Assembly (NCBI GenBank): GCA_011040545.1
Contig: DQYM01000020.1
Coordinates: 1 to 10,185 of the forward strand
DNA: 10,185 nt
Origin: Candidatus Bathyarchaeota archaeon
GTDB taxonomy: Archaea > Thermoproteota > Bathyarchaeia > EX4484-135
Reading direction: 5' to 3'
Shown piece after piece: positions 1 through 10,184 of this stretch (position 1 is the stretch's first letter; the number at the start of each line of letters is the position of its first letter). The notes under the pieces were generated by a model. The model was not told the DNA's origin. It did not search any database and saw nothing but the letters and a program-made list of their open reading frames with translations. The position numbers and the translations under genes were made by a program.

Positions 1-1806
1 CATAAGGCCAGATATAGCGTAGTAGATGGAATTCAAGCCAAGCCTTCCCCTTAGCACCCCCCTCAGGCGCCTGAGATAGGGCCTAGTGGCTAGGATCCCC
101 TCAGGCCTTGGCCTGCCCCGCACGTACAATGAGAAGGCCAGGAGGGCCCCAGCAGCCAAGAGGGATAGGGAGGCCAGCGTACCAGGTAAGTGCCAGGAGG
201 TTAGAGCTGAGCTAGCAGTGGATTTGGTTCCTAGGTAGCTATTTAATACTGATCCGAGGGGCTCCTCTAGTCCTGGCATTATTATAGGGGCAAGTAGGCC
301 TATTACCACGGATATTATAGCTAGAAGGGCAGGTGTGAATGAGGCTAGGTGCCCTAGGGATGCCCCTGCATGCCTCTCCCCCCTGGCTGGCCCATGGAAG
401 ACCAGGCCCAGCATCCTTATCGTGTAGAAGGCTGTTAGGAATACTGTTAGTAGGGCTAAGAGGAAGGGCAGCATGAGGCCAGAGGCCAAGCAGGCACTTA
501 GTATTTCTTCCTTGCCCCAGAAACCACTCAAGGGGGGAAGGCCGATCAGGGAGAGGCCCAGGACCAAGGACGATGCCCATGCCAGCCCTATCTCACGCCT
601 CAGGCCACCCATTTGCTCCACGTATATGGAGCCAGCCAAGTGGATAGCTAGGCCAGCTACCATGAAGAGGGCTGATTTGAAAGCTGCGTGGGCAGCTAGG
701 TGGTAGAAGGTAGCCGTGAGGGCAGGGGCTGGATCGGGCATTAGGCCAGCAGCACCTAGGCCCAGCATCATGTATCCAAGCTGGCTCATGGTGGAGTAAG
801 CGAGGATCTTCTTCAGCTCAGAGGACACACAGCCTTCTGCTGCTGCTAAAATGGCTGTAAGGGCACCTGAGTAAGCTACTATCAGGAAGAAAATAGATGC
901 CTCCCAGGCCCCGAGCTCGTGGAGGCCAATGTAAAAGATGGGGAGGAAGCGAGCTGCAACAAACACGCCAGCCTTCACCATGGTAGCAGCGTGTATGAGG
1001 GCCGAAACGGGCGTGGGACCAGCCATGGCCTCTGGCAACCACTCCTGGAATGGAAACTGAGCTGATTTTGAGAGGGGACCAGCAGCTAGGAGCGTGGCCG
1101 TGAGGGCGAGCATGCCAGGCGTGCTGGCGAGGGCAGCTAGCCATGCCTTGGCACTAGCGTAGATGGCCGTGAGCCTGAGGGTGCCTGCGTAGGCGTAGAT
1201 CAGGAATATGCCAGAGAACATGAGGACATCGCCCACCGTGGTCGTGAACAGGGCCTTGAGGCCACAGTGCGAGGGCGAGTACATGGGTTCGGGAGGTGGG
1301 CCCCCGACCCAGCGCTCAGGCTCATCCGTGTAGTAGTGGCTTATGAGGGCGTAGCTACAGAAGCCCACTAGCTTCCAGCCAACTAGCATGGTGATTAAAT
1401 CGCCAGCTAAAACGAGGAGGAGCATGGAGGCCAGGAAGAGGCTCATGAGGGACCAGAAGCGGGGCCAGCCAGGCTCATGCCTCATGTAATCGGCTGAGTA
1501 GAGCAGTATCAGGAGGCCGATGAGGGACACCAGCACGGCCATGAGGAGGCTAAGGGGGTCTAGGAGGATGAAGAGGGGTATCCCTGGGGCCCATAGGGGG
1601 CTAGCCTCAAGCTCTAGGTAAGAGCTACCCCAGAGAGATGTAAGCAGGAGGGCTGATGAAACAAGACTGATGGAGCATGCTGATATCGCCACGGCGGGAG
1701 GGGCCTTCTCATGGATCCTGCCTAGGAGGGCAGCTAGGACGGTCGCTAGAGCTGGTGCCAGGATGCAGGAGGCAACTAGGTAGGCTGTGGGGAGTGGGAC
1801 GACCAT
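1..1806 (-). CDS. nuoL: NuoL/MrpA-type antiporter-like subunit of the membrane hydrogenase (3' end outside the window)
   Basis: Large proton-translocating membrane subunit of the complex I / group 4 hydrogenase family. The reading frame is open for 602 codons and leaves the window at base 1, so the C-terminal lateral helix and last TM segments are missing. Family motifs, read from the sequence: TM5 region GWKLVGFCSYALI (about residues 143-155), KSAQFPFQEWLPEAM with the TM7 lysine K247, GPTPVSALIHAATMVKAG (263-280), SSELKKILAYSTMSQLGYM, FYHLAAHAAFKSALFM and GLPPLSGFWGKEEIL. The TM5 glutamate of the family (E144 in E. coli NuoL) is Lys145 here (codon AAG, bases 1374-1372). The preceding gene stops with TGA inside ATGA at 1812-1809. 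ATG 1812 lies only 1 nt after GGAGG, whereas ATG 1806 lies 7 nt after it, so 1806 is chosen. It is the last visible gene of the minus-strand unit. The family call is very secure; the ion carried is unknown. Confidence 0.93.
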   Translation of the reverse strand, partial: MVVPLPTAYLVASCILAPALATVLAALLGRIHEKAPPAVAISACSISLVSSALLLTSLWGSSYLELEASPLWAPGIPLFILLDPLSLLMAVLVSLIGLLILLYSADYMRHEPGWPRFWSLMSLFLASMLLLVLAGDLITMLVGWKLVGFCSYALISHYYTDEPERWVGGPPPEPMYSPSHCGLKALFTTTVGDVLMFSGIFLIYAYAGTLRLTAIYASAKAWLAALASTPGMLALTATLLAAGPLSKSAQFPFQEWLPEAMAGPTPVSALIHAATMVKAGVFVAARFLPIFYIGLHELGAWEASIFFLIVAYSGALTAILAAAEGCVSSELKKILAYSTMSQLGYMMLGLGAAGLMPDPAPALTATFYHLAAHAAFKSALFMVAGLAIHLAGSIYVEQMGGLRREIGLAWASSLVLGLSLIGLPPLSGFWGKEEILSACLASGLMLPFLLALLTVFLTAFYTIRMLGLVFHGPARGERHAGASLGHLASFTPALLAIISVVIGLLAPIIMPGLEEPLGSVLNSYLGTKSTASSALTSWHLPGTLASLSLLAAGALLAFSLYVRGRPRPEGILATRPYLRRLRGVLRGRLGLNSIYYAISGLM

Positions 1807-1808
1807 GC

Positions 1809-3296
1809 TCATCCCTCCTGGTGGCCTAGGCTCAGTAGGTCCTGGGCACCCAGCGAGGCTAGATCTAAGGCTAGCCAGGGCCAGATGCCTAGGGCGATGA
1901 TGAAGCTGGAGAGGGTGAAGAAGGAGGCTAGCTCTGGCAGTGGGGTGCGCCCCCTCCTAGCTGGCTGGCCCTCCGCTTCCTGCCTCAGTAGCTCCTTCAC
2001 GGCCCTGAAGTAGACAGCAGCAGCTACTACCACGTTGACCAAGAAGGCAAGAGCCAGCCACCACCAGGCTGAGGAGAAGAAGGCAGAGAAGAGCAGGATC
2101 TTCTCCACAAAACCAGATGTACCAGGCAGGCCCGCCCGACAGGTCAGCGCTAAGGTCAGGAAGGTTGTAGCAGCTTTCCTCAGAGCTCTAGAGCGGGATA
2201 GGTGGCTAAACAATCTTGATCTAGCCACAGAGGCTAAGGAGCCAGCCCCAAGGAAGGCCAGGGACTTGGAGAAGGCATGACTAATGATTAAGAATATCAA
2301 GGCCGAGATAGACCCTGCTGTTCCAACTGCTAGGGCAGCAGCCATGTACCCTATTACAGCCAAACTTGAGTAGGCCAGGAAGCGCTTTACATCTGATTGG
2401 ACTAGGGCGCAGAAGTTGCCCAAGAACATATTCGCTACTCCAACGAGGGCTAGGAGGACATGCCAGCCTGATGCTGATTGATGAAATATGGTCAGGAGGG
2501 CCTTCAGTAGCCAGAAGAAGCCTATTTCCGTAGTTATACCAGCTAAGGTAGCACTTACTGGTGTTGGGGCCTCTGAATAAGCATCTGGAAGCCATGTGTG
2601 GAGCGGGACCAAAGCAGCTTCAACACCAGCCCCAGCTACGAAGATCAGGAGAGCTATCTGAAGCCATGGACCACTTGCCCCTGATAGCCTCTCGGCCAGC
2701 TGGAGTAAGTTCAGTGTGCCAGCCATGCCGTAAAGCAGGGAAGCACCAAAGAGCATGACCAAGGCACCAGAGGAGCCCATTATGAAGTACTTCCAAGCTG
2801 CCTCAAGGGCTGCCTTCCTATCCCCACCTAGGGCCACGAGGGCGTAGGCCGAGAGGCACATGACCTCCCAGAAGACGTAGAGGACCAAGAGGTCGCCTGA
2901 GAATAGCACGCCTACCATGCCTAGGCAGAGGCCTAGGAAGGCGGTGGAGAAGCCAGGCTCGTATGGCTGGCTTAGGGCATAGAGGGAGGCTGCTGAGGCC
3001 ACTAAGAGGGCCACTACAGCTAGGAGGAGGCTGGCCCTATCCACAAGGAAGGTGGTTGAGAGGCCTAATGGCCCAAAAGCTATCACGATGGGCCATCCTA
3101 AGGCCTGACCTGAGAGGTATGGCATGAGCAGGCAGTAGGAGGCCATTAAGAGGGTCGTGAGGGGTGAGGCCAGAGAGAGAGCACGTGGTAAGCTGGGTAG
3201 GGCCTTAGAGCGACCAAGGCATTCAACTACTGGCGATATCAGGAGGGAGGCAAGCAGCACGTAGAGGACCAGTATCGGATCTAGCAGGCCCCTCAC
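1809..3296 (-). CDS. NuoM/NuoN (MrpD-family) antiporter-like subunit
   Basis: A 495-residue polytopic membrane protein of the proton-conducting family (Proton_antipo_M), usual size for NuoM/NuoN/MrpD. Visible motifs: FSGDLLVLYVFWEVMCLSAY with the TM5 glutamate E144, AAWKYFIMGSSGALVM (about 166-181), PLHTWLPDAYSEAPTPVSA (231-249), QSDVKRFLAYSSLAVIGYM with K304, the TM11 IISHAFSKSLAF, and GLPGTSGFVEKILLF. The lysine normally preceding PLHTWLP in TM7 is Glu226 (VEAALVP), and the TM8 position usually occupied by Lys in NuoM (LAG..LK.G) is Glu256 (AGITTEIG). The gene starts at GTG within GTGA, overlapping the nuoK stop by 4 nt, and ends in ATGA at the start region of nuoL, so translation is probably coupled. 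NuoM and NuoN are hard to separate from sequence alone; HTWLPDAY leans to NuoM/MrpD. It would form one ion channel of the pump. Confidence 0.92.
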   Translation of the reverse strand: MRGLLDPILVLYVLLASLLISPVVECLGRSKALPSLPRALSLASPLTTLLMASYCLLMPYLSGQALGWPIVIAFGPLGLSTTFLVDRASLLLAVVALLVASAASLYALSQPYEPGFSTAFLGLCLGMVGVLFSGDLLVLYVFWEVMCLSAYALVALGGDRKAALEAAWKYFIMGSSGALVMLFGASLLYGMAGTLNLLQLAERLSGASGPWLQIALLIFVAGAGVEAALVPLHTWLPDAYSEAPTPVSATLAGITTEIGFFWLLKALLTIFHQSASGWHVLLALVGVANMFLGNFCALVQSDVKRFLAYSSLAVIGYMAAALAVGTAGSISALIFLIISHAFSKSLAFLGAGSLASVARSRLFSHLSRSRALRKAATTFLTLALTCRAGLPGTSGFVEKILLFSAFFSSAWWWLALAFLVNVVVAAAVYFRAVKELLRQEAEGQPARRGRTPLPELASFFTLSSFIIALGIWPWLALDLASLGAQDLLSLGHQEG

Positions 3297-3610
3297 CCCC
3301 GTAGCTTCCTCAGGGCCCAGGCATCAACGGTCCCAGTGCGCTTGTATATAGCTAGGGCCAGGGCTAGGCCGAAGGCAGCTATGCACCCTCCAACAGCTAG
3401 CACGATTATAATAAGTACCCCAACCACGGGATCTGAGTGGCCTGGATTGGACATGGCCGAGAGGGCAGCAAAAGCAAGGCAGGTAGCATTTACAAGTACC
3501 TCAAGGGAGATTACAAGCCTAATTAGGTTCCTCTTGGAGGCCAAGCCGTAGAGGCCTAGGACCAGGAGGCCCAGGGAGCATATCAAGACGGCTTCTGGCC
3601 CGCTTAACAA
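3293..3610 (-). CDS. nuoK: NuoK / MrpC-type small membrane subunit
   Basis: A 105-residue protein with three TM segments, close to the size of E. coli NuoK (100 aa). The motif KRNLIRLVISLEVLVNAT (about 26-43) carries the TM2 glutamate E37, equivalent to E. coli NuoK Glu36. The second channel glutamate (E. coli Glu72, AAAEASIGLALLL) is absent: the aligned stretch is AVGGCIAAFGLALAL, with Ile77 at that site, which resembles MrpC/Mbh-type proteins more than complex I. The start is TTG at 3610, overlapping the end of the upstream nuoJ-C gene by 7 nt, with a purine-rich GGAGGGGTGAGGAG just upstream. The stop is TGA shared with the GTG of the next gene. It is expected to sit between NuoJ and the antiporter-like subunits in the membrane arm. 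Confidence 0.92.
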   Translation of the reverse strand: MLSGPEAVLICSLGLLVLGLYGLASKRNLIRLVISLEVLVNATCLAFAALSAMSNPGHSDPVVGVLIIIVLAVGGCIAAFGLALALAIYKRTGTVDAWALRKLRG

Positions 3611-3879
3611 CGCTCCTCACCCCTCCACAGCCTAACCATGGCTACTCCCACGGCAGCAGCCAGTAGGGCCAAGGATGCCTGGGCAATGAGGTCTGGAAAC
3701 CTATCCTCCCAGATGACGTAGGGGAGGGCCTCATTCATCTCCTCTACTGGCCTGAGGGAGGCTGGCTTCCCGAACTTAAAGGATGGGAAGGGCGGGAATC
3801 CCTGGACCAGCAAGAGGGCCAGGAGGGCAGCCGAGAGGAGCACAGCCAGAGCGCCAGCTAGGGGCCTAAGTGCCCTCAT
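3604..3879 (-). CDS. NuoJ C-terminal half (split NuoJ / MrpB-like), 91 aa
   Basis: The protein starts at ATG 3879 (MRALRPLAG), not at the farther upstream TTG at 4005: residues encoded between 4005 and 3880 are Arg/Cys/Pro-rich and lie antisense-of-frame over the preceding gene. The start lies in an ATGA overlap with the stop of the nuoJ N-terminal half. The protein has one TM segment near residues 8-26, a periplasmic-type loop (GFPPFPSFKFGKPASL), then EALPYVIWEDRFPDLIAQ leading into a second TM segment (about 66-84) and a short basic tail. Position between the NuoJ N-half and NuoK, and the TM-loop-TM plan, indicate the second part of NuoJ, which is also split in some archaeal Fpo/Mbh systems. 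Direct similarity to NuoJ in this half is weak, so identity rests partly on context. Confidence 0.8.
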   Translation of the reverse strand: MRALRPLAGALAVLLSAALLALLLVQGFPPFPSFKFGKPASLRPVEEMNEALPYVIWEDRFPDLIAQASLALLAAAVGVAMVRLWRGEERC

Positions 3880-4115
3880 AGCGCCTCGCCCCCAACGAAC
3901 ATTACAGCTGCTACAAGCAGGATCACGACGGCACCTGCATATACGAGTAAGTGGAAGAGGGCCACGTAGGTAGCGATGAGGAGCCAGTAGATCAGGCCAG
4001 CACATATAAACATGACGATGAGCCAGATGATGGAGCGCATGAGCTTCTTGTCCTCAAGGGCCGCCAGGGCTGACGCAAGGGTGATGGCCGCTAGGACTAT
4101 CAGAGCCAGGTCCGT
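3876..4115 (-). CDS. nuoJ: NuoJ N-terminal half, apparently starting at ACG (79 aa)
   Basis: This gene is easily missed because its frame has no ATG, GTG or TTG between the upstream in-frame TAA (near 4166) and an ATG that falls after TM1. Read from ACG 4115 it gives MDLALIVLAAITLASALAAL, a loop with EDKKLMRS, then two TM segments containing LIYWLLIATYVALFHLLVYA and GAVVILLVAAVMFVGGEAL. The sequence FHLLVYAGAVVILLVAAVMF matches the NuoJ TM3 signature (VQILVYAGAVVVLFLF-type). A GGGGGAGAGGG purine run ends 1 nt before the ACG. CTG at 4109 is an alternative start. The stop TGA overlaps the ATG of the C-terminal half. It is the first gene of the minus-strand unit, 85 bp from the divergent nuoA start. 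The identification as NuoJ is firm; the start codon is inferred. Confidence 0.82.
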   Translation of the reverse strand, partial: TDLALIVLAAITLASALAALEDKKLMRSIIWLIVMFICAGLIYWLLIATYVALFHLLVYAGAVVILLVAAVMFVGGEAL

Positions 4116-4151
4116 GCCCTCTCCCCCACCTCGGCTAGGCAGGGTAGCCTT

Positions 4152-4179
4152 CTTAAGGCTTATACTTTACCAGCTTAAG
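4152..4179. promoter_or_regulatory. Pair of CTTAAG sites 22 bp apart flanking the TATA-like core
   Basis: CTTAAG occurs at 4152-4157 and 4174-4179. Each is itself a palindrome, and the starts are 22 bp apart, about two helical turns, on the same DNA face. They bracket the TATA-like TATACTTT. This geometry fits a dimeric transcription factor, but no regulator is encoded in the window and the assignment is speculative. Confidence 0.3.
4153..4163. promoter_or_regulatory. Palindromic box TTAAGGCTTAT, shared with 8100-8110
   Basis: The inner TAAG-G-CTTA is a perfect inverted repeat around base 4158. The same element (ATAAGGCTTAA on plus, TTAAGCCTTAT on minus) lies at 8100-8110 ahead of the nuoCD-nuoI unit. 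From the centre to the candidate start is 43 nt for nuoA (4201), 43 nt for nuoJ-N (4115), and 43 nt for nuoCD from the second copy. It may be the BRE/TATA core itself or an overlapping regulator site. Confidence 0.6.
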
Positions 4180-4200
4180 TCAAGTAAGGGGCGAGGGGCG

Positions 4201-4545
4201 ACGGAGGGAGACTATCTTACGTTACTAGGTTTGGCATTTGGCCTATCCTTGATTATAGCGCTCATCCTCTACATCGTTGGAAGGCTAATGGCTGAGAAAG
4301 GGACTAAAACAGAGGCTGAGCTATCGCCCTATGCCTGTGGGGAGGCAGTGCCCCCAGTAAGGCCTAAGATGGATATGTCTAGGTTCTTCGTCTACCTACT
4401 TCTCTTCCTAGCCTTTGATGTAGCCACGCCCATAATCGCCCTAGCCGTGCTGGGCCACTACGTACAGGCAGCCCTCTACCTGGCCGTGATCCTACTGGCC
4501 ATCCTAACCCCCGCCTTCTACCTAAGGGAGCTGATGGGGAGGTAG
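4201..4545 (+). CDS. nuoA: NuoA-like membrane subunit, apparently starting at ACG
   Basis: Small subunit of complex I-type enzymes at the junction of the membrane arm and quinone/active-site region. The conserved core is visible: a first TM (about residues 8-28), a loop with LSPYACGEAVPP, then MSRFFVYLLLFLAFDV and a third TM ending in LREL. Versus complex I, YECG is YACG, and in the FDVE motif the acidic Glu is Ala75 while Asp73 is kept. The frame is open upstream to ATG 4012, but that part lies antisense to nuoJ-N, crosses the promoter, and encodes an Arg/Ser-rich stretch unlike any NuoA, so it is rejected. After the promoter the first plausible starts are ACG 4201 (giving MEGDYLTLLGLAFG, 114 aa, normal length) and TTG 4231 (which would begin inside TM1). 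ACG 4201 is preferred on length and on its spacing to the palindromic box. Confidence 0.85.
   Translation, partial: TEGDYLTLLGLAFGLSLIIALILYIVGRLMAEKGTKTEAELSPYACGEAVPPVRPKMDMSRFFVYLLLFLAFDVATPIIALAVLGHYVQAALYLAVILLAILTPAFYLRELMGR
4538..4543 (+). promoter_or_regulatory. Shine-Dalgarno GGAGGT fixing the TTG start of nuoB
   Basis: GGAGGT overlaps the nuoA stop codon TAG (4543-4545) and lies 7 nt upstream of TTG 4551. This strong site is the main reason for accepting the TTG as the nuoB start. Confidence 0.75.
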
Positions 4546-4550
4546 TAGCC

Positions 4551-4985
4551 TTGGGCCTCCTACGCTGGGCTAGGGCAGTTTCACCATGGATCCTCCACTT
4601 CAATACTGGTGCCTGCAATGCCTGTGATATAGAGGTCGTAGCTGCCCTCACGCCAAGGTTTGATGTAGAGCGCTTTGGCGCCCTTAAGGTCGGTAGCCCA
4701 AGGCACGCTGACATCTTAGTTGTAACTGGGCCAGTAACACGGGAGTCAGAACCAAGGTTAAGGCGCCTCTACGAGCAGATGCCTGAGCCCAAGCTCGTAA
4801 TGGCCGTTGGGACGTGCGCCATAAGCGGTGGTGTCTTCGCTGGCTGCTACAACGTACGTGGTGGCGTGATAAACGTGCTTGGCAAGGCAGATATGATGGT
4901 GCCAGGATGCCCACCTAGGCCTGAGGCCATCTTAGAAGGCTTGATAAAGCTAGTAGAAAGGTTAAGAGGCATTAAGAAGAGGTGA
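4551..4985 (+). CDS. [NiFe] hydrogenase small subunit, group 4 (NuoB/MbhJ/HycG type)
   Basis: A 144-residue electron-transfer subunit carrying the single [4Fe-4S] cluster next to the active site. Ligands visible: C22 and C25 in NTGACNACDIE, C89 in AVGTCAISGG and C120 in VPGCPPRPEA. The CxxC spacing (CNAC) is that of group 4 hydrogenases (MbhJ, EchC, HycG); complex I NuoB has two adjacent cysteines (CC). The stretch SPRHADILVVTGPVT and LTPRFDVERFG are also typical of the Mbh-like proteins. The start is TTG, supported by GGAGGT at 7 nt. It follows nuoA by 5 nt and its TGA stop overlaps a GTG at 4982, so nuoA-nuoB-nuoH are translated as one operon. It should pair with the large subunit encoded at 6374-8062, although the two are in opposite transcription units. 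Confidence 0.95.
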   Translation: MGLLRWARAVSPWILHFNTGACNACDIEVVAALTPRFDVERFGALKVGSPRHADILVVTGPVTRESEPRLRRLYEQMPEPKLVMAVGTCAISGGVFAGCYNVRGGVINVLGKADMMVPGCPPRPEAILEGLIKLVERLRGIKKR

Positions 4986-4990
4986 TCGCC

Positions 4991-5971
4991 ATGGTCTTGA
5001 GCTTGAATGACCTAATAGCCATGCTTATCTTCCCTGGCTTCTTCTTCCTCATATTAATGGCCTTCTTCCTAGAGTGGCTAGATAGGAAGGTAGTAGCAAA
5101 AGTGCAGGATAGGTATGGCCCCCTAATGGCTGGCCCAGCGGGCATACTCCAGCCCATAGCCGATTTCATCAAGCTCCTCTCTAAAGAGGATATAGTGCCA
5201 AGGGGGGCCAATAAGGTGCTCCTAACGGCTGGCCCTATACTAATGGTTGCCCTCCCGCTGACGGCCCTCCTCTTCGTGCCCATAGATGGCCAGAGCGCCA
5301 TAGTTGATTTTGAGGGGAGCCTTATAGCTGTCCTCTTCATACTGATACTGACTACCCAGCTTGTGCTCCTAATCGGCTGGGCTAGTGCAAATGTATTTGC
5401 TGCTGAGGGATCCATGAGGTCAGCCCTCCAAATGCTTAGCTATGAGATACCCCTTGCCCTCACGGCCATCTGCCCAGCCCTCATGGCTGGTAGCCTAAGC
5501 CTCAGCGAGATCTACCGTGCCCAGGCGGAGCTTGGCTGGCCATTCCTGGCCTACCTACCGCCCCTTGGCGCCATATCCTTCTTGGTGTTCCTAACGTGCT
5601 CCCTAGCTGAGCTTGAGAGGGTCCCCTTTGATGCCCCAGAGGCGGAAACCGAAATAGTAGCAGGCTGGATGACGGAGCTAACTGGCCGAAGGCTAGCCCT
5701 CGTTAAGCTAGGAAGGAACCTGGACTTCCTCCTAATGGCCAGCTTGATGGCCAGCCTCTACCTTGGCGATCCAATAACGCCTAGCTTGCCCCTGCTGGCA
5801 CCAGCTGCCTTCATATTGAAAACGCTAGCCTGCGCTGGCATCATGTCCTTCGCTAGGGGCCTAGTAGCTAGGTTCAGGATAGACCAGGCCCTACGCCTAT
5901 TCTGGACCTACATAATACCGATATCAGTAGGCGTCCTAGTGGCTACTAAGCTTGCCCTCCTGCTTGCCTAG
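4991..5971 (+). CDS. nuoH: NuoH / MbhM-type membrane anchor subunit
   Basis: A 326-residue polytopic protein that connects the peripheral catalytic arm to the membrane pump. The first cytoplasmic loop reads EWLDRKVVAKVQDRYGP followed by GILQPIADFIKLLSKED, and the third loop ELERVPFDAPEAETE (about residues 208-222), both hallmark NuoH sequences; GWMTELTGRRLALVKLGRN follows. GTG 4982 is an alternative start overlapping the nuoB stop, but GAGGTGATC at 4979-4987 is a near-perfect anti-16S match and lies just before ATG 4991, which favours the latter. The C-terminal end overlaps the convergent nuoI by 26 bp (5946-5971). The SKEDI form of the first loop resembles Mbh/Ech hydrogenases more than quinone-reducing complex I. 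Confidence 0.95.
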   Translation: MVLSLNDLIAMLIFPGFFFLILMAFFLEWLDRKVVAKVQDRYGPLMAGPAGILQPIADFIKLLSKEDIVPRGANKVLLTAGPILMVALPLTALLFVPIDGQSAIVDFEGSLIAVLFILILTTQLVLLIGWASANVFAAEGSMRSALQMLSYEIPLALTAICPALMAGSLSLSEIYRAQAELGWPFLAYLPPLGAISFLVFLTCSLAELERVPFDAPEAETEIVAGWMTELTGRRLALVKLGRNLDFLLMASLMASLYLGDPITPSLPLLAPAAFILKTLACAGIMSFARGLVARFRIDQALRLFWTYIIPISVGVLVATKLALLLA

Positions 5972-6377
5972 CCTGCCCCCCGCCCCCAACGTGGCTTACG
6001 CTTACGACCCTGAAGTCCAGCACGAGGTCGTGGGGATCTGAGGCCACGGGGGCGAGCTGCTGAGTTGGGCTAATGGCCCCCTTTGGGCAGCTCTCGGCAC
6101 ACTGGAAGCAGAATATGCACTTGCTTAGGTCCACTACAGGGACGCCTAGGCCCCTGCTGTAGCCAGGCTCCTTTACGAGCACTATGGCACCTGATGGGCA
6201 ATCACGGGCGCAGAGGCCACAGCCAACGCACTTATCTAGTTCTATCATGTGCTGGCCCCTGAAGCCCTTTGGCACCTCAATCTTCTCCTCTGGGTAGCGG
6301 ACAGTAGCTGGCCTCCTTACTACGGCCCTTAGGAGCGTCCGAATGGCATCCTTTAGCAGGGCTGGCAGTAGCCTCAA
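5946..6377 (-). CDS. nuoI: NuoI / MbhN-type ferredoxin-like subunit with two [4Fe-4S] clusters
   Basis: A 143-residue iron-sulfur protein that carries electrons between soluble ferredoxin and the NuoB-like cluster. Two CxxCxxCxxxCP sets are complete: C50, C53, C56, C60 (CVGCGLCARDCP) and C87, C90, C93, C97 (CIFCFQCAESCP). The N-terminal region has RRPATVRYPEEKIEVPKGFRG, the usual membrane-docking segment of Mbh/Nuo I subunits. The start is TTG within a TTGA overlap with the large-subunit stop, so the two are probably translationally coupled. The last residues (about VGGGGQARQAGGQA) are Gly/Ala/Gln-rich, unlike the core, and their codons lie partly opposite the end of nuoH, which suggests that the stop codon has drifted into the neighbouring gene. 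Confidence 0.94.
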   Translation of the reverse strand: MRLLPALLKDAIRTLLRAVVRRPATVRYPEEKIEVPKGFRGQHMIELDKCVGCGLCARDCPSGAIVLVKEPGYSRGLGVPVVDLSKCIFCFQCAESCPKGAISPTQQLAPVASDPHDLVLDFRVVSVSHVGGGGQARQAGGQA

Positions 6378-8062
6378 GACCTACCAAGCCTCCTAGCTAG
6401 CTTAGGTAGCTCATCTATGTAGCAGGACCAGGAGCGACCACTACCAACATCAACGACCACTACCCTATCCGTGCATGAGAAGCATGGGTCTATGCTGGCT
6501 AAGGTAACTGGCACGTCAGCTAGGTAGACGCCCTGTAGCATCTTAGCAAGTGGGGCTAGGTTCGTGAAGGTAGGGGTCCTTATCTTAAGCCTAGCTGGCT
6601 TATCCGTGCCGTTTGCTAGCAGGTAGTAGAGGAGCTCCCCCCTTGGTGCCTCAACCGTGCAGACGGCCTCGCCAGGGCCAACCCTCCTTGGAGCCCTTAC
6701 CCTTACCTTGCCCCCTGGAAGGCAGGAGAAGGACTCCTCAATTACATCTAGGCTTACAAGGCATTCCTCTATGCGTGCTACATACCTAGCCCACGAATCG
6801 CCTTCTTTAAGCACGATCGGCCTAAATGTTGATAGCTCCTCATAGGCCACATATGGATCCTTATCCCTAACATCAAAATCAACACCAGAGGCCCTTAGGG
6901 TTGGCCCCGTAGCACATAAATCTATAGCATCTGAGCGAGTTAGAATGCCTACCTTCTCCGTCCTAGCCAGAATGGTCGGGTCTGTTTTAAACACATCAAG
7001 GTAGTGTTCTAATCGCTCCCTAAGGGGCCTTAGGCGTGATAATATCTTATTGATGAGTGATGGCGATACATCCCTGCTGACCCCACCTATGCGGTTGAAG
7101 GAGCTTATCACACGGTTGCCAGTTAGGAGCTCCATAGCATCCATGACGGCCTCCCTATCACGCCAGATGTACATGAATAGCGTGGAGAAGCCCATTTCCT
7201 CAGCTGCTACACCAAGTAGGAGCATGTGGCTGTGGAGCCTGTTCAGCTCTGCAGCAGCAACCCTTAGGAACTGAACTCTCCTTGGGACCTCAAGGCCGAG
7301 GACACGCTCAACTGTAAGGCAGTAGCAGAGGCTATGGGCTACATTACAGATGCCACATACACGCTCGCACAGGTAGAGGTCGTGGATGTAGGTCCTGCGT
7401 TCGGCTGCCTCCTCTATGCCCCTGTGGGCGTAGCCTATCCTTATATCAACATCTACTACTACCTCGCCATCTACCTTGAATACGAATCGCTCTGGCTCGT
7501 GAAGGGCTGGGTGCTGGGGGCCAATTATGAGCGTGAGGTAGGGGCCTTCCTCACCAGTTATAACTGGCTTCAACTTGGGCTTTGTTTCAACTGGCCTAAG
7601 CCGCCTTGCCTCTACTTCCTTCCTAAGTGGGTGAAAGCCCTCAGGTGCATCATCTGGTAGCAGGAGCCTCTTTAGGTTCGGATGGCCCTTGAACACCACG
7701 CCGACCATATCATATGCTTCACGCTCATGGAGGTTAGCACCAGGTATAATTGGCGTGAGGCTATCAACTACTACAGGCCCCTCCCCCTTCTCAACCTCCA
7801 TCCTAAGCGTTAGGATGGCCTTATCCAGCCTTAGGTGGTAGAGGAGGGCTATTTTATCGCCTAGATCTACGCCAGTTAGGCCAGATAGCCTTAGGTCTGG
7901 GAAGGCGTGCTTTAGGGCTCTTACAGCCTTGGTGTGTGCGCCTAGAACCACCTCAGCCCATGCCCTAAGTGGGCTTACACGCCTGTAGGAAATGAGGTCC
8001 CCACCAAGCTCCTGCTTCAAGAGGCCCTCGCAGGCCTCTAGCTCATCCAGCCCCTCCCTCGT
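6374..8062 (-). CDS. [NiFe] hydrogenase large subunit fused to a NuoC-like domain (HycE/HyfG type, NuoCD)
   Basis: Catalytic subunit. Numbering is from TTG 8020 (548 aa). Residues 1 to about 145 form the NuoC (30 kDa) domain, ending in LHEREAYDMVGVVFKGHPNL and PDDAPEGFHPLRKE. The rest is the NuoD/hydrogenase domain. Both nickel-binding motifs are intact: E219-R-V-C222-G-I-C225-N-V-A-H229 and D511-P-C513-F-S-C516-T-D-R519. NuoD of complex I lacks these cysteines, so this should bind a NiFe(CN)2CO centre. A 29-residue tail follows R519, as in E. coli HycE, where the protease HycI cuts after the equivalent Arg. LHSHMLLLGVAAEEMGF and NRIGGVSRDV are family sequence. An upstream in-frame ACG at 8062 adds 14 residues completing the first NuoC helix, has GTGAGGGG 8 nt before it, and sits at the same distance from a palindromic box as in two other genes; it is used here, but TTG 8020 remains possible. 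HycE-like length (562 versus 569). Confidence 0.95.
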   Translation of the reverse strand, partial: TREGLDELEACEGLLKQELGGDLISYRRVSPLRAWAEVVLGAHTKAVRALKHAFPDLRLSGLTGVDLGDKIALLYHLRLDKAILTLRMEVEKGEGPVVVDSLTPIIPGANLHEREAYDMVGVVFKGHPNLKRLLLPDDAPEGFHPLRKEVEARRLRPVETKPKLKPVITGEEGPYLTLIIGPQHPALHEPERFVFKVDGEVVVDVDIRIGYAHRGIEEAAERRTYIHDLYLCERVCGICNVAHSLCYCLTVERVLGLEVPRRVQFLRVAAAELNRLHSHMLLLGVAAEEMGFSTLFMYIWRDREAVMDAMELLTGNRVISSFNRIGGVSRDVSPSLINKILSRLRPLRERLEHYLDVFKTDPTILARTEKVGILTRSDAIDLCATGPTLRASGVDFDVRDKDPYVAYEELSTFRPIVLKEGDSWARYVARIEECLVSLDVIEESFSCLPGGKVRVRAPRRVGPGEAVCTVEAPRGELLYYLLANGTDKPARLKIRTPTFTNLAPLAKMLQGVYLADVPVTLASIDPCFSCTDRVVVVDVGSGRSWSCYIDELPKLARRLGRS

Positions 8063-8174
8063 GGCACCAGCCCCTCACAGCAGGCTACAGGCCTAGTAGA
8101 TAAGGCTTAATGGAGCATTAGCTAGCCTTAATCACTAATAGGCTTGAGCGGGCGTGGCGTTGAGGCGAGCTAGC
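8063..8174. promoter_or_regulatory. Divergent promoter region of the hydrogenase large subunit and the ADP-ribosylglycohydrolase gene
   Basis: The gap is AT-richer between about 8098 and 8142. On the minus strand TTAAGCCTTATCTA (from 8110) is a TATA-like element 37 nt before ACG 8062. On the plus strand CCTTAATCACTAATAG (about 8126-8141) could serve the glycohydrolase gene, with a short leader carrying GAGGCGAG before ATG 8175. No RNA gene or hairpin terminator is apparent. Promoter elements are inferred from sequence only. Confidence 0.5.
8100..8110 (-). promoter_or_regulatory. Second copy of the palindromic box TTAAGCCTTAT
   Basis: It differs from the copy at 4153-4163 only in the central base when both are read toward the gene. 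Its centre, 8105, is 43 nt from ACG 8062, the same distance as in the two divergent starts at the first copy. I found no other copy of the inner TAAGSCTTA in the window by eye. Confidence 0.55.
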
Positions 8175-9086
8175 ATGGCCGTGAGCCCAGGGGTGCTTAG
8201 GTCTAAGTTCGCTGGTAGCCTCCTCGGCACTGCTATTGGGGATTCACTTGGAGCTGGGGCCTGGCTTAGAATCCCTGGCCGTGAGCTCGCACCTCACTAC
8301 ACAGATGACACCCACATGGCCATAAGCGTGGCGAAATCGCTTGTTGAGAAGAAGGGGCTTGATTTAGAGCACCTCTTCCTGACCTTCGTGCGTGATTGGG
8401 AAGCCGAGCCCTGGAGGGGCTATGGGCCTGGCCCACCAGCCATATTCAGGGCCTTCAGGCGAGGTGAGGATCCAAGGAGGGTAGCTGAGCAGCTCTACCC
8501 AGGTGGCTCATTTGGGAATGGTGCTGCCATGAGGGTAGCTCCCCTAGCCTGCTTCTACCACGATGACCTAGAGGAGCTTAGGAGGGCAGTTGAGGGGGCC
8601 AGTAGGCTAACGCACACGCACCCACTGGGCATTGAGGGGGCACTGCTCCAGGCCTACGCAGTAGCCATGGCCGTGAGTTCTACTGGGCCACTAAATGGCC
8701 TGGCCTTCGTAGAGGAACTCCTCTCCCTGGCCGAGAGCCAAGTGTATAGGCGGAAGCTCACGACCATAATTGGCTTCCTCTCAAGGCCAAGGAGGCCAAG
8801 CAGGAGGGAGGTCGTGAGGGAGCTTGGGAATGGTGTTGAGGCCTTTAACTCAGTGCCAACCGCCATCTATGCCTTCACGGCCACGAGCAGTTTTGAGGAA
8901 GCCGTTAGGATGGCCGTGAGCTTTGGTGGCGATATGGATACCATAGGCGCTATGGCTGGCGCCATAGCTGGTGCCTTCTATGGCCGTGAGGCCATACCTG
9001 CTAGGTGGCTAGGTGAGCTTGAGAACAGGGATTACATAGAGCGTTTGGCCGTGAGGCTCTGGGAGGTAAAGATGGGCTTAGGCTAG
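8175..9086 (+). CDS. ADP-ribosylglycohydrolase (ARH/DraG family)
   Basis: About 303 residues, standard for the all-helical, di-Mg2+ ADP-ribosylhydrolase family that removes ADP-ribose from proteins or small molecules. Family motifs are complete: GSLLGTAIGDSLGA near the N-terminus, YTDDTHMAI (T43, D44, D45 from ATG 8175) and GGDMDTIGAMAGAIAGAFYG (D253, D255, T256), which supply the metal ligands; GNGAAMRVAPL and THTHPLGIEGA lie between. GTG 8154 and TTG 8160 are possible earlier starts, but GAGGCGAG at 8162-8169 favours ATG 8175. The gene is divergent from the hydrogenase large subunit and overlaps the convergent orc1/cdc6 gene by 9 bp. The substrate cannot be told from the sequence, and a link to the hydrogenase is only positional. 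Confidence 0.93.
   Translation: MAVSPGVLRSKFAGSLLGTAIGDSLGAGAWLRIPGRELAPHYTDDTHMAISVAKSLVEKKGLDLEHLFLTFVRDWEAEPWRGYGPGPPAIFRAFRRGEDPRRVAEQLYPGGSFGNGAAMRVAPLACFYHDDLEELRRAVEGASRLTHTHPLGIEGALLQAYAVAMAVSSTGPLNGLAFVEELLSLAESQVYRRKLTTIIGFLSRPRRPSRREVVRELGNGVEAFNSVPTAIYAFTATSSFEEAVRMAVSFGGDMDTIGAMAGAIAGAFYGREAIPARWLGELENRDYIERLAVRLWEVKMGLG
8177..9055 (+). repeat. Cluster of the word GGCCGTGAG (six copies here, nine on the plus strand of the window)
   Basis: Exact copies start at 8177, 8277, 8669, 8912, 8982 and 9047 within the glycohydrolase gene, and at 1096, 1165 and 9930 in genes on the opposite strand. A one-mismatch copy is at 712-720. Only one copy was found on the minus strand (5459-5467). 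Two reading frames are used inside the glycohydrolase gene (AVS and GRE), so the excess is not explained by one repeated peptide. No function is assigned. Confidence 0.45.
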
Positions 9087-10184
9087 GCCCTCCTCAGCTA
9101 GGACCTCCTTAAGCAAGGACCTTGGGATGGCTAGCCTTATCTTCTTGGTCCTCCCGTACCGCCCCATGTTCGCTAGCTGAGCGTTTAGGAGGCCAAGCAT
9201 GTCAAGCTCATTTATTATGCTGCTTACCCTCCTCTGCGTCAGGGGGCTAATGGCCATTCGGCCACAGATGGCTGAGTAGGCAGCGTATATCTCGCCTGTG
9301 ATGGCTGAGCTAGAGCGCTTCGTCATCTCGTAGACGGCCAGCAGGACCAGCTTGGCGTGGAGGGGGAGACTCCTTATGGCAATTACCGTCCTATCGTGCT
9401 CAATCTGCTTTAGTGCCTTCCTGACGTGCTCCTCCGATACCCTCGTGGCCCCCTCACGTTCTGCGATCTCACCAGCTACCCTAAGGAGGTCTAGCGCCCT
9501 ACGGGCATCACCGTGCTCCTGGGCCGAGAGGGCTGCACATAGGTTTATAACGGGCTCGGGGACGGCCCCCTCAACGAAGGCCAGCTTAGCCCTCTCAAGC
9601 AGTATATCACGTAGTTGAGCAGCATTATATGGCTTAAAGACCATTTCCTCCTCGCTAAGCGAGCTTAGCACCCGTGGATCTAGGTGCTCCTTGAACGTTA
9701 GGTCATTTGATATGCCTATGAGGGAGATCTTAGAGCCATTTAGCTCTGGCCCCATGCGTGTTAGCTCGTAGAGGAGGGCATCTCCATGTGCCTTGACCAG
9801 CACATCTATTTCATCAAGCATCACCACGAATACTATGGCCCTTCGGGAGAGGGCCTTCTTCAGCCTGCTGAGTACCTCTGCCTTCGCTAGGCCAGTGAAA
9901 GGGACCTTAACGCCTAGTGATGAGCACATGGCCGTGAGGACACGGTACTCTGTCCCCACCATACGACAGTTCACGTAGCAGGTGGCCACTGGGGCACCTA
10001 CCTCCTCAGCCTTGGCCCTTAGCTTCTCAAGGACGAACCTAGCTACAGCCGTCTTCCCAGTACCCGTCTTGCCATATATGAAGACGTTTGAGCACTTCTG
10101 GCCCCTCAGGGATGGGGCCAATATGGAGGCCAAGGTCCTTATCTCGTTCTCCCTATGTGGTAGTCGCTCTGGTACGTAGTCGTG
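9078..10184 (-). CDS. cdc6: Orc1/Cdc6 replication initiator (5' end outside the window)
   Basis: Archaeal origin-binding AAA+ ATPase. The frame is open to the right edge, so the N-terminus is missing; the first visible residues HDYVPERLPHREN are the typical segment just before the AAA+ fold. Walker A is YGKTGTGKTA (about visible residues 37-46), Walker B VVMLDEID (about 120-127), sensor 1 GISND (around 157-161), sensor 2 region HGDARRALDLLRVAG, and a C-terminal winged-helix domain begins near LPLHAKLVLLAVYEM and includes SPLTQRRVSSIINELDMLGL. About 368 residues are visible of a usual 390-410. A methionine-type start (TTG 10133) exists inside the frame but would cut off conserved sequence. It ends with TAA at 9080-9078 within the convergent glycohydrolase gene. 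Origin recognition boxes, if present, would lie upstream, beyond the right edge. Confidence 0.96.
   Translation of the reverse strand, partial: HDYVPERLPHRENEIRTLASILAPSLRGQKCSNVFIYGKTGTGKTAVARFVLEKLRAKAEEVGAPVATCYVNCRMVGTEYRVLTAMCSSLGVKVPFTGLAKAEVLSRLKKALSRRAIVFVVMLDEIDVLVKAHGDALLYELTRMGPELNGSKISLIGISNDLTFKEHLDPRVLSSLSEEEMVFKPYNAAQLRDILLERAKLAFVEGAVPEPVINLCAALSAQEHGDARRALDLLRVAGEIAEREGATRVSEEHVRKALKQIEHDRTVIAIRSLPLHAKLVLLAVYEMTKRSSSAITGEIYAAYSAICGRMAISPLTQRRVSSIINELDMLGLLNAQLANMGRYGRTKKIRLAIPRSLLKEVLAEEGLA

What the first reader, a model, noticed from the sequence alone, without database searches (positions are those of the whole stretch)
1..8062. Group 4 [NiFe] hydrogenase built on a near-complete complex I subunit set, including NuoA
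Seen: the large subunit keeps both nickel CxxC motifs and the cleavable tail, and the small subunit has hydrogenase-type CxxC, yet the locus also encodes NuoA, NuoH, NuoI, split NuoJ, NuoK, NuoL and a NuoM/N protein, and no NuoEFG. Known: characterised Hyc/Hyf/Mbh/Ech hydrogenases are not described with a canonical NuoA, whereas complex I has lost the nickel ligands. Inference: this is an intermediate or hybrid ferredoxin/H2 ion pump, informative for the origin of complex I, possibly in the poorly characterised group 4 lineages of archaea.
Basis: partly seen in the sequence, partly recalled or inferred. Interest (0 to 1): 0.75.

Follow-up and report, generated by a model that had tools for sequence, protein, structure and literature searches.

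The report
Complex I-like nickel-iron hydrogenase (Hfo)
The window encodes a hydrogen enzyme that keeps its nickel site but is built on the membrane framework of respiratory complex I; this type was already named Hfo in 2021, and the new part is a set of residues in three subunits that change together with the nickel site.

Summary
In detail: the contig encodes a [NiFe] large subunit with both nickel motifs and a 29-residue tail, a small subunit, and NuoA, H, I, split J, K, L and an M/N-type subunit. The NuoA loop reads x-(C/S/G)-G-E in 79 of 79 nickel-type loci but has an acid before the Cys position in 9 of 9 Ni-less rows; NuoD's MbhL-Glu21 equivalent is Glu in 67 of 67 readable nickel rows and 0 of 20 Ni-less; NuoH Lys126 occurs only in Ni-less rows. 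Nickel loss is one branch on my tree, so this is one evolutionary event, not many.

The parts
1..1812 (-). NuoL/FpoL-like antiporter subunit, 3' end cut by the contig edge
   Evidence: PF00361 7.1e-53, best NCBIfam models NuoL
1809..3296 (-). NuoN/NuoM-like antiporter subunit
   Evidence: PF00361 4.6e-64; TIGR01770 NuoN 9.9e-67, TIGR01972 NuoM 5.2e-61
3293..3610 (-). NuoK-like subunit
   Evidence: PF00420 1e-19
3604..3879 (-). C-terminal part of split NuoJ (J2)
   Evidence: no Pfam or NCBIfam hit; found next to K and J1 in syntenic loci by iterated profile
3876..4166 (-). N-terminal part of split NuoJ (J1); open frame given, start codon uncertain
   Evidence: profile hits to J genes of syntenic loci; frame
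4231..4545 (+). NuoA/ND3-like subunit with loop motif YACGE and FDVA in place of FDxE (open frame from 3991)
   Evidence: PF00507 4.5e-7; ND3/NuoA in PDB; alignment; start codons
4551..4985 (+). small subunit (NuoB-like) with hydrogenase-type GACNACD
   Evidence: PF01058 8.6e-31; sequence
4982..5971 (+). NuoH-like membrane anchor; loop ELERVPFDAPEAETE; Val at the ND1-K126 position
   Evidence: PF00146 1.3e-86; columns
5946..6377 (-). NuoI-like 2[4Fe-4S] subunit
   Evidence: TIGR01971 2.4e-26, Fer4
6374..8020 (-). fused NuoC + [NiFe] large subunit with L1 CGIC, L2 DPCFSCTDR, MbhL-Glu21 equivalent and 29-residue tail
   Evidence: best PDB hits HycE 1.7e-85 and MbhL 2.7e-85, ahead of complex I chains

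Best explanation
The locus encodes an Hfo: an energy-converting [NiFe] hydrogenase built from the 11 subunits shared by Fpo and Nuo. Electrons enter from ferredoxin at NuoI, pass through NuoB to the nickel-iron site in the C/D protein, where protons are reduced to H2 (or H2 oxidised in reverse). The NuoD beta1-beta2 loop, the NuoA TM1-2 loop and the NuoH loop pass the redox change to the J/K/L/M/N pump arm. Shown here: gene set, nickel ligands, proton-shuttle Glu, maturation genes, family placement. Inferred: ferredoxin as partner, ion pumping, and that a full NuoA places the pump arm as in complex I rather than in the rotated position of Mbh/FHL. Direction: probably H2 evolution from reduced ferredoxin made by 2-oxoacid oxidoreductases, reversible for CO2 fixation.
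For: Subunits by Pfam/NCBIfam. Nickel ligands intact. Of the 80 loci, 70 have NuoA on the fetched stretch, 62 have A-B-CD-H-I in a row on one strand and 37 of these run on to J-K-L. Window in a starred 23-row clade (100/98) with Bathyarchaeota/Bathycorpusculum and related rows; Ni-less rows are one side of a 100/99 branch. Own genome: HypD and HycI protease; HypB, HypC, HypA by eye; three PF01558 (POR) genes; CdhC; no NuoF; no Ni-less NuoD among the hits. Literature: PMC7886697; PMC10477458 passages.
Against: PMC7886697 states that no hydrogenase of subgroup 4g is biochemically characterised. Direction and coupling ion are unknown; Loh et al. prefer H2-driven ferredoxin reduction. The assembly is 85.85% complete in 257 contigs, so absence of NuoF or of a Ni-less complex is not proof. 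The genome has a second group 4 large subunit beside an HdrB-like gene (C61), so the Hyp genes could serve that one.
Confidence: 0.85

Rival explanations
1. A respiratory complex (Fpo/Nuo type) whose nickel motifs are relics: it passes ferredoxin electrons to a quinone-like carrier.
For: Complex I-type membrane set with a conserved NuoH loop; NCBIfam best models are NuoD/NuoB/NuoH names; Ni-less Fpo-like complexes occur in class-mates (L124-L138) and in Methylarchaeales (PMC9478090 passages).
Against: The MbhL-Glu21 equivalent is Glu in all 67 readable nickel rows and none of 20 Ni-less; tail plus HycI protease and Hyp genes; tree places the window on the nickel side; NuoA lacks the ND3-E38 acid and NuoH lacks K126.
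Confidence: 0.05
2. An Mbh/Hyc-like hydrogenase with a chance or non-partner NuoA gene nearby.
For: Closest solved large subunits are HycE and MbhL.
Against: NuoA is on the stretch in 70 of 80 loci and directly before B-CD-H-I in 62; its motif tracks the type of NuoD; the window large subunit lies outside the Mbh/Hyc/HdrB-type clade (14 rows, 100/99).
Confidence: 0.04
3. Direction only: the same enzyme run mainly in reverse, with the ion gradient driving H2-dependent ferredoxin reduction for the Wood-Ljungdahl pathway.
For: Proposed for Bathy-6 by Loh et al. (PMC7886697 sections 8 and 10); CdhC is present in this genome.
Against: Three POR-domain genes point to a ferredoxin source from 2-oxoacids; no direct evidence either way.
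Confidence: 0.35

Closest known systems
Hfo, Fpo-like [NiFe] hydrogenase of Bathyarchaeia (HydDB subgroup 4g; PMC7886697)
   Same: 11 complex I-type subunits, L1/L2 nickel motifs, no NuoEFG nearby, same class of archaea
   Different: Gene order here is broken into three blocks (J1-J2-K-N-L; A-B-H; I-CD) and NuoJ is split; the large subunit has a tail, whereas 36 rows of one Bathyarchaeal clade end at DPCFSCTDR
Mbh (group 4d) of Pyrococcus furiosus
   Same: [NiFe] large subunit with Glu21; MbhI carries the equivalent TM1-2 loop (PMC11228991 passages); antiporter subunits
   Different: No freestanding three-helix NuoA (from papers); pump arm placed differently (PMC7684303, PMC9474812 passages); large subunit in another starred clade
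FHL/Hyd-3 and Hyd-4 (Hyc, Hyf; group 4a)
   Same: C-D fused large subunit with tail; HycC C-terminus is ND3-like with a conserved Cys (PMC9474812 passages)
   Different: NuoA element fused to HycC/HyfB, loop reads VCGY/ACGY, so neither acid
Fpo-like / Nuo complexes without nickel
   Same: Same membrane subunits including NuoA
   Different: Nickel Cys set and MbhL-Glu21 equivalent lost; acid before the Cys position in NuoA; mostly Lys126 in NuoH

Membership tests
Hfo (Fpo-like [NiFe] hydrogenase) | Same 11 subunits as Fpo/Nuo (A-D, H-N) | tested here: met
   A, B, fused C/D, H, I, J (two genes), K, L, M/N type in the window plus a NuoM-like gene at the edge of contig C33; linkage of C33 inferred from both edges being cut, not shown
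Hfo (Fpo-like [NiFe] hydrogenase) | L1 and L2 nickel motifs in subunit D | tested here: met
   CGICNVAH and DPCFSCTDR
Hfo (Fpo-like [NiFe] hydrogenase) | No NuoEFG and no FpoFO module | tested here: inconclusive
   None in the window; no PF01512 (NuoF) in the genome; FpoF/FpoO, NuoE and NuoG not searched genome-wide; genome 85.85% complete
Hfo (Fpo-like [NiFe] hydrogenase) | Large subunit groups with Bathyarchaeal Hfo | tested here: met
   Starred 23-row clade 100/98 holding Bathyarchaeota and Bathycorpusculum rows
Hfo (Fpo-like [NiFe] hydrogenase) | HydDB class 4g | not testable with these tools
   HydDB not available; BA1 and Bathy-6 enzymes are 4g in PMC5037454 and PMC7886697
Hfo (Fpo-like [NiFe] hydrogenase) | H2/ferredoxin activity coupled to ion transport | not testable with these tools
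   Experiment; not shown for any 4g enzyme according to PMC7886697
Respiratory complex I / Fpo | Nickel ligands lost in NuoD/FpoD | tested here: not met
   All four Cys present
Respiratory complex I / Fpo | Input module NuoEFG or FpoFO | tested here: inconclusive
   None in the window; no NuoF in the genome; the rest not searched genome-wide
Mbh (group 4d) | No freestanding NuoA; MbhI instead; Mrp-type Na+ module | tested here: not met
   NuoA of the ND3 family present; no Mrp-type A/B/C/F block seen in the window, though the contig is cut

The most novel reading that the evidence does not exclude
Nickel loss in the complex I lineage came with a coupled three-subunit relocation of charged groups: the hydrogenase proton-shuttle Glu in the NuoD loop was given up while NuoA gained the acid before its loop Cys (ND3-E38) and NuoH gained Lys126. 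The ancestor already had the full NuoA-containing arm, so complex I architecture would predate quinone chemistry, and Mbh/Hyc would be reduced, rotated derivatives.
Probability: 0.25. Interest if true: 0.75.

Novelty: new member of a known kind. Interest (0 to 1): 0.42.

Why it matters
Hfo has been proposed as the living enzyme type nearest to the switch from hydrogen to quinone chemistry, and it is already in print. What this work adds is a concrete, testable residue signature of that switch (NuoA, NuoD, NuoH), which lets a NuoA sequence predict whether its complex is of hydrogenase type, and NuoA-containing nickel clusters in Chloroflexota.

Tried and rejected
NuoA by chance: rejected (profile, synteny, motif). 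NuoA equal to a hydrogenase-only subunit by sequence: no Mbh/Hyc chain among the 27 PDB hits at E<=10, and a COG comparison found no relatives of NuoA (PMC13399641 passages), although structural papers describe MbhI and the HycC C-terminus as ND3-like. Relic nickel motifs: rejected. A root for the tree: tried with two outgroup rows on end branches of 2.45 and 3.66 changes per column; the root fell between Ni-less and nickel rows, which is against a simple 'Hfo before complex I' and also exposed to long-branch error, so I draw no conclusion. AU test: Hfo as one clade not rejected (p 0.405). Structure prediction of NuoA never ran, so there is no fold search and no A/H/CD contact model. The residue associations rest on one nickel change on the tree; the Fisher value printed is not meaningful as a probability.

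Prediction test: for NuoA genes whose NuoD was not readable on the fetched stretch I wrote predictions for 16 genomes first; all 16 agreed. Limits: the NuoD type of G003, G009, G048 and G122 had been seen before, so 12 were blind; in G003 and G053 the only NuoD found belongs to the Mbh/HdrB-type clade, so the true partner may be missing; G102 and G127 hold nickel-type NuoD genes besides the predicted Ni-less one, and in G102 the Ni-less NuoD is in two contig-edge pieces, each lacking its motif. G046 and G074 read ACGQ, so the rule that held is 'acid at the second place', not 'Glu at the fifth'.
Full report
What is there. The window is a complete contig (G000:C16, 10,185 bp) of a 1.06-Mb assembly in 257 contigs, completeness 85.85. 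Genomes of the same class include two whose contigs match named Bathyarchaeota records in length and place (G014 = RSWS8, G038 = M17C-01), so the source is very probably a Bathyarchaeia archaeon. On the minus strand lie L (cut by the edge), an M/N-type subunit, K and a NuoJ split in two; on the plus strand A, B and H; on the minus strand again I and a fused C/D protein. An ADP-ribosylglycohydrolase and, by eye, an Orc1/Cdc6-like gene follow.

Catalytic site. The C/D protein has CGIC and DPCFSCTDR motifs followed by 29 residues. Its best solved relatives are E. coli HycE and P. furiosus MbhL, ahead of complex I chains. In an alignment of 96 large subunits I classed 70 as nickel type by the two motifs and 26 as Ni-less. 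The residue equivalent to MbhL Glu21, the proton shuttle according to PMC11228991 (passages), was not used for that classing: it is Glu in 67 of 67 nickel rows readable there (3 gaps) and in 0 of 20 readable Ni-less rows (6 gaps).

Genome context. HypD and a HycI-type protease lie on contig C12, with HypB and HypC by eye on the same contig and HypA by eye at the start of C61; HypE and HypF were not searched. A third antiporter-like gene is cut at the edge of C33; since the window's L gene is cut at its own edge, C33 is a likely continuation, but linkage is not shown. No NuoF; three PF01558 genes; CdhC. The only other relative of the large subunit found in this genome lies on C61 next to an HdrB-like gene, the HdrB-linked kind discussed in PMC9723716 (passages).

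It is a known kind. PMC7886697 (Loh, Herve and Brune 2021; abstract, passages, sections 8 and 10 read) describes an 11-subunit Fpo-like [NiFe] hydrogenase, Hfo, in Bathyarchaeia, with L1 and L2 motifs, classed 4g, with similar clusters in Ca. Methanomethylicus and Pyrodictium, and argues that it is a closer link to complex I than Mbh. PMC10477458 (passages) applies the name to cultivated Bathyarchaeum tardum. PMC8407382 and PMC9478090 (passages) describe Fpo-like clusters in the same phylum, the latter explicitly without nickel motifs. A search for papers holding at least four of the words Loh, Hfo, hydrogenase, complex I, Fpo-like found only the first two.

Relatives. One scan of genome contigs gave 80 loci, the best of 563. 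Of these 80, 70 have NuoA on the stretch, 62 have A-B-CD-H-I in a row on one strand, and 37 of the 62 run on to J-K-L; several of the 10 without NuoA are cut by contig ends. In Chloroflexota J-K-L-L precedes A-B-C-D-H-I. In a tree of 128 large subunits, 79 of 112 nickel rows have NuoA on the same stretch. Rows without it include Mbh, Hyc, Hyf and HdrB-type enzymes, nine database proteins without context, and split clusters such as G009, where A-C-H-J-K-L lies at about 39 kb and B-D-I at about 341 kb of one contig. Twenty rows, 19 of them named Chloroflexota members and one 'bacterium', form a clade at 100 (SH-aLRT).

Phylogeny. Careful tree of 96 rows: nickel and Ni-less rows are separated by one branch, 100/99; the window lies in a 23-row clade (100/98) of Bathyarchaeal and related rows. 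In the 67-row tree the 14 Mbh/Hyc/HdrB-type rows form one clade, 100/99. Holding all Hfo rows together is not rejected (p 0.405). With two very long outgroup rows the root falls between Ni-less and all nickel rows (nickel side 99/86). That speaks against Hfo as the direct ancestor of complex I, but the design invites long-branch error. So 'intermediate' is neither shown nor excluded.

NuoA. ND3/NuoA is the PDB family hit by a profile of 23 Hfo-type NuoA proteins (26 of 27 hits at E<=10). [quoted passage not shown] I infer that an Hfo has the complex I arrangement.

Residue switch. First set: the loop reads (Y/F)-x-(C/S/G)-G-E without acid at the second place in 79 of 79 nickel loci, and has Glu at the second place and none at the fifth in 9 of 9 Ni-less rows, E. 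coli NuoA included (alignment, count). Second set: of 151 genomes of the phylum I took 60 stretches. Where a NuoD readable over both motifs and a NuoA lay on one stretch, 19 of 19 nickel loci fit, and 21 of 21 Ni-less loci have an acid at the second place: 20 Glu (one, L239, beside an unread residue) and 1 Asp (L210); L195 and L196 have Glu at both places. One Ni-less NuoD stretch (L190) had no NuoA found. The prediction test on 16 genomes is told with its limits under Tried and rejected. NuoH: the position of mouse ND1-K126 is Lys in 0 of 103 NuoH rows from nickel loci with NuoA (2 gaps; commonest Arg 46 and Pro 43), in 0 of 16 from nickel loci without NuoA, and in 28 of 32 from Ni-less loci after two non-partner rows are set aside; the other four are Arg in three and Pro in L210, whose NuoA has Asp. 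The type of some of these loci was taken from the genome-wide NuoD search. In mouse complex I, ND3-E38 contacts ND1-K126, and ND3-C39 contacts NDUFS2-H55, at the quinone site (PMC10396290 passage). The simplest reading is that proton supply was rewired when nickel was replaced by quinone chemistry. Because nickel loss is one branch on my tree, this is one event seen many times by descent.

Tail. Of 112 nickel rows, 37 end at the R of the L2 motif: 36 in one clade supported at 100 (SH-aLRT) and MbhL, for which I had only a PDB chain. One more, L117, also ends there. Such proteins would need no C-terminal cleavage. The main text of PMC7886697 has no occurrence of 'protease' or 'C-terminal'.

Mechanism. 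Best supported: ferredoxin to NuoI, NuoB, nickel site, H2, with the NuoD/NuoA/NuoH loops driving the pump arm. Gene set, ligands and loop residues are shown; ferredoxin, pumping, direction and arm placement are inferred.

Noticed in passing
L068, L072-L074, L076-L081, L084, L087, L091-L094, L096-L098, L100: [NiFe] Hfo-like clusters in Chloroflexota (Anaerolineae, Thermoflexus, Ornatilinea; one row named only 'bacterium'), a 20-row clade at 100; 18 of 20 have NuoA on the stretch, loop Y-x-(S/G)-G-E. The words Chloroflexi and Anaerolineae do not occur in the main text of PMC7886697; the listings of paper searches (15 of 31 shown; 3) named nothing of the kind, but those papers were not read.
   Followed up: partly
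L025, L030, L031, L033, L034, L036, L037, L041-L053, L055-L062, L064-L067, L069: Large subunits that end exactly at DPCFSCTDR, with no C-terminal extension to cleave; with three database proteins they make one clade at 100.
   Followed up: partly
L103 (G000:C61:1-5358): Second group 4 hydrogenase set in the same genome: HypA, Fe-S protein, C-type, HdrB-like, large subunit, small subunit fused to a ferredoxin domain (by eye); no NuoA found.
   Followed up: partly
L114 and L237 (G009); also L110, L112, L236: Split Hfo: in G009 B-D-I and A-C-H-J-K-L lie about 300 kb apart on one contig. L110 (G024), L112 (G019) and L236 (G003) look like single halves of the same arrangement; the other halves were not looked for or not found.
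   Followed up: partly
L216:3-1390 and L217:10597-12001: A-H-K-L-M/N cluster without NuoD next to a full Ni-less cluster; its NuoA loop reads FTGG and its NuoH has Pro at K126. Partner unknown.
   Followed up: no
L125, L127, L133: Ni-less NuoD in 660-670 aa proteins that seem, by eye, to include a NuoB-like part, in three class-mates (G011, G021, G031); no NuoA, H or J found on the stretches.
   Followed up: no
window 4130-4231: Divergent region between J1 and NuoA; J1 has no ATG/GTG/TTG before its first membrane helix and NuoA's best start is TTG at 4231 after a GGAGGGAG stretch.
   Followed up: partly
window 8154-9086 and 9078-10184: ADP-ribosylglycohydrolase (PF03747 1.3e-63) and a cut Orc1/Cdc6-like ATPase (by eye) downstream of the hydrogenase.
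   Followed up: no
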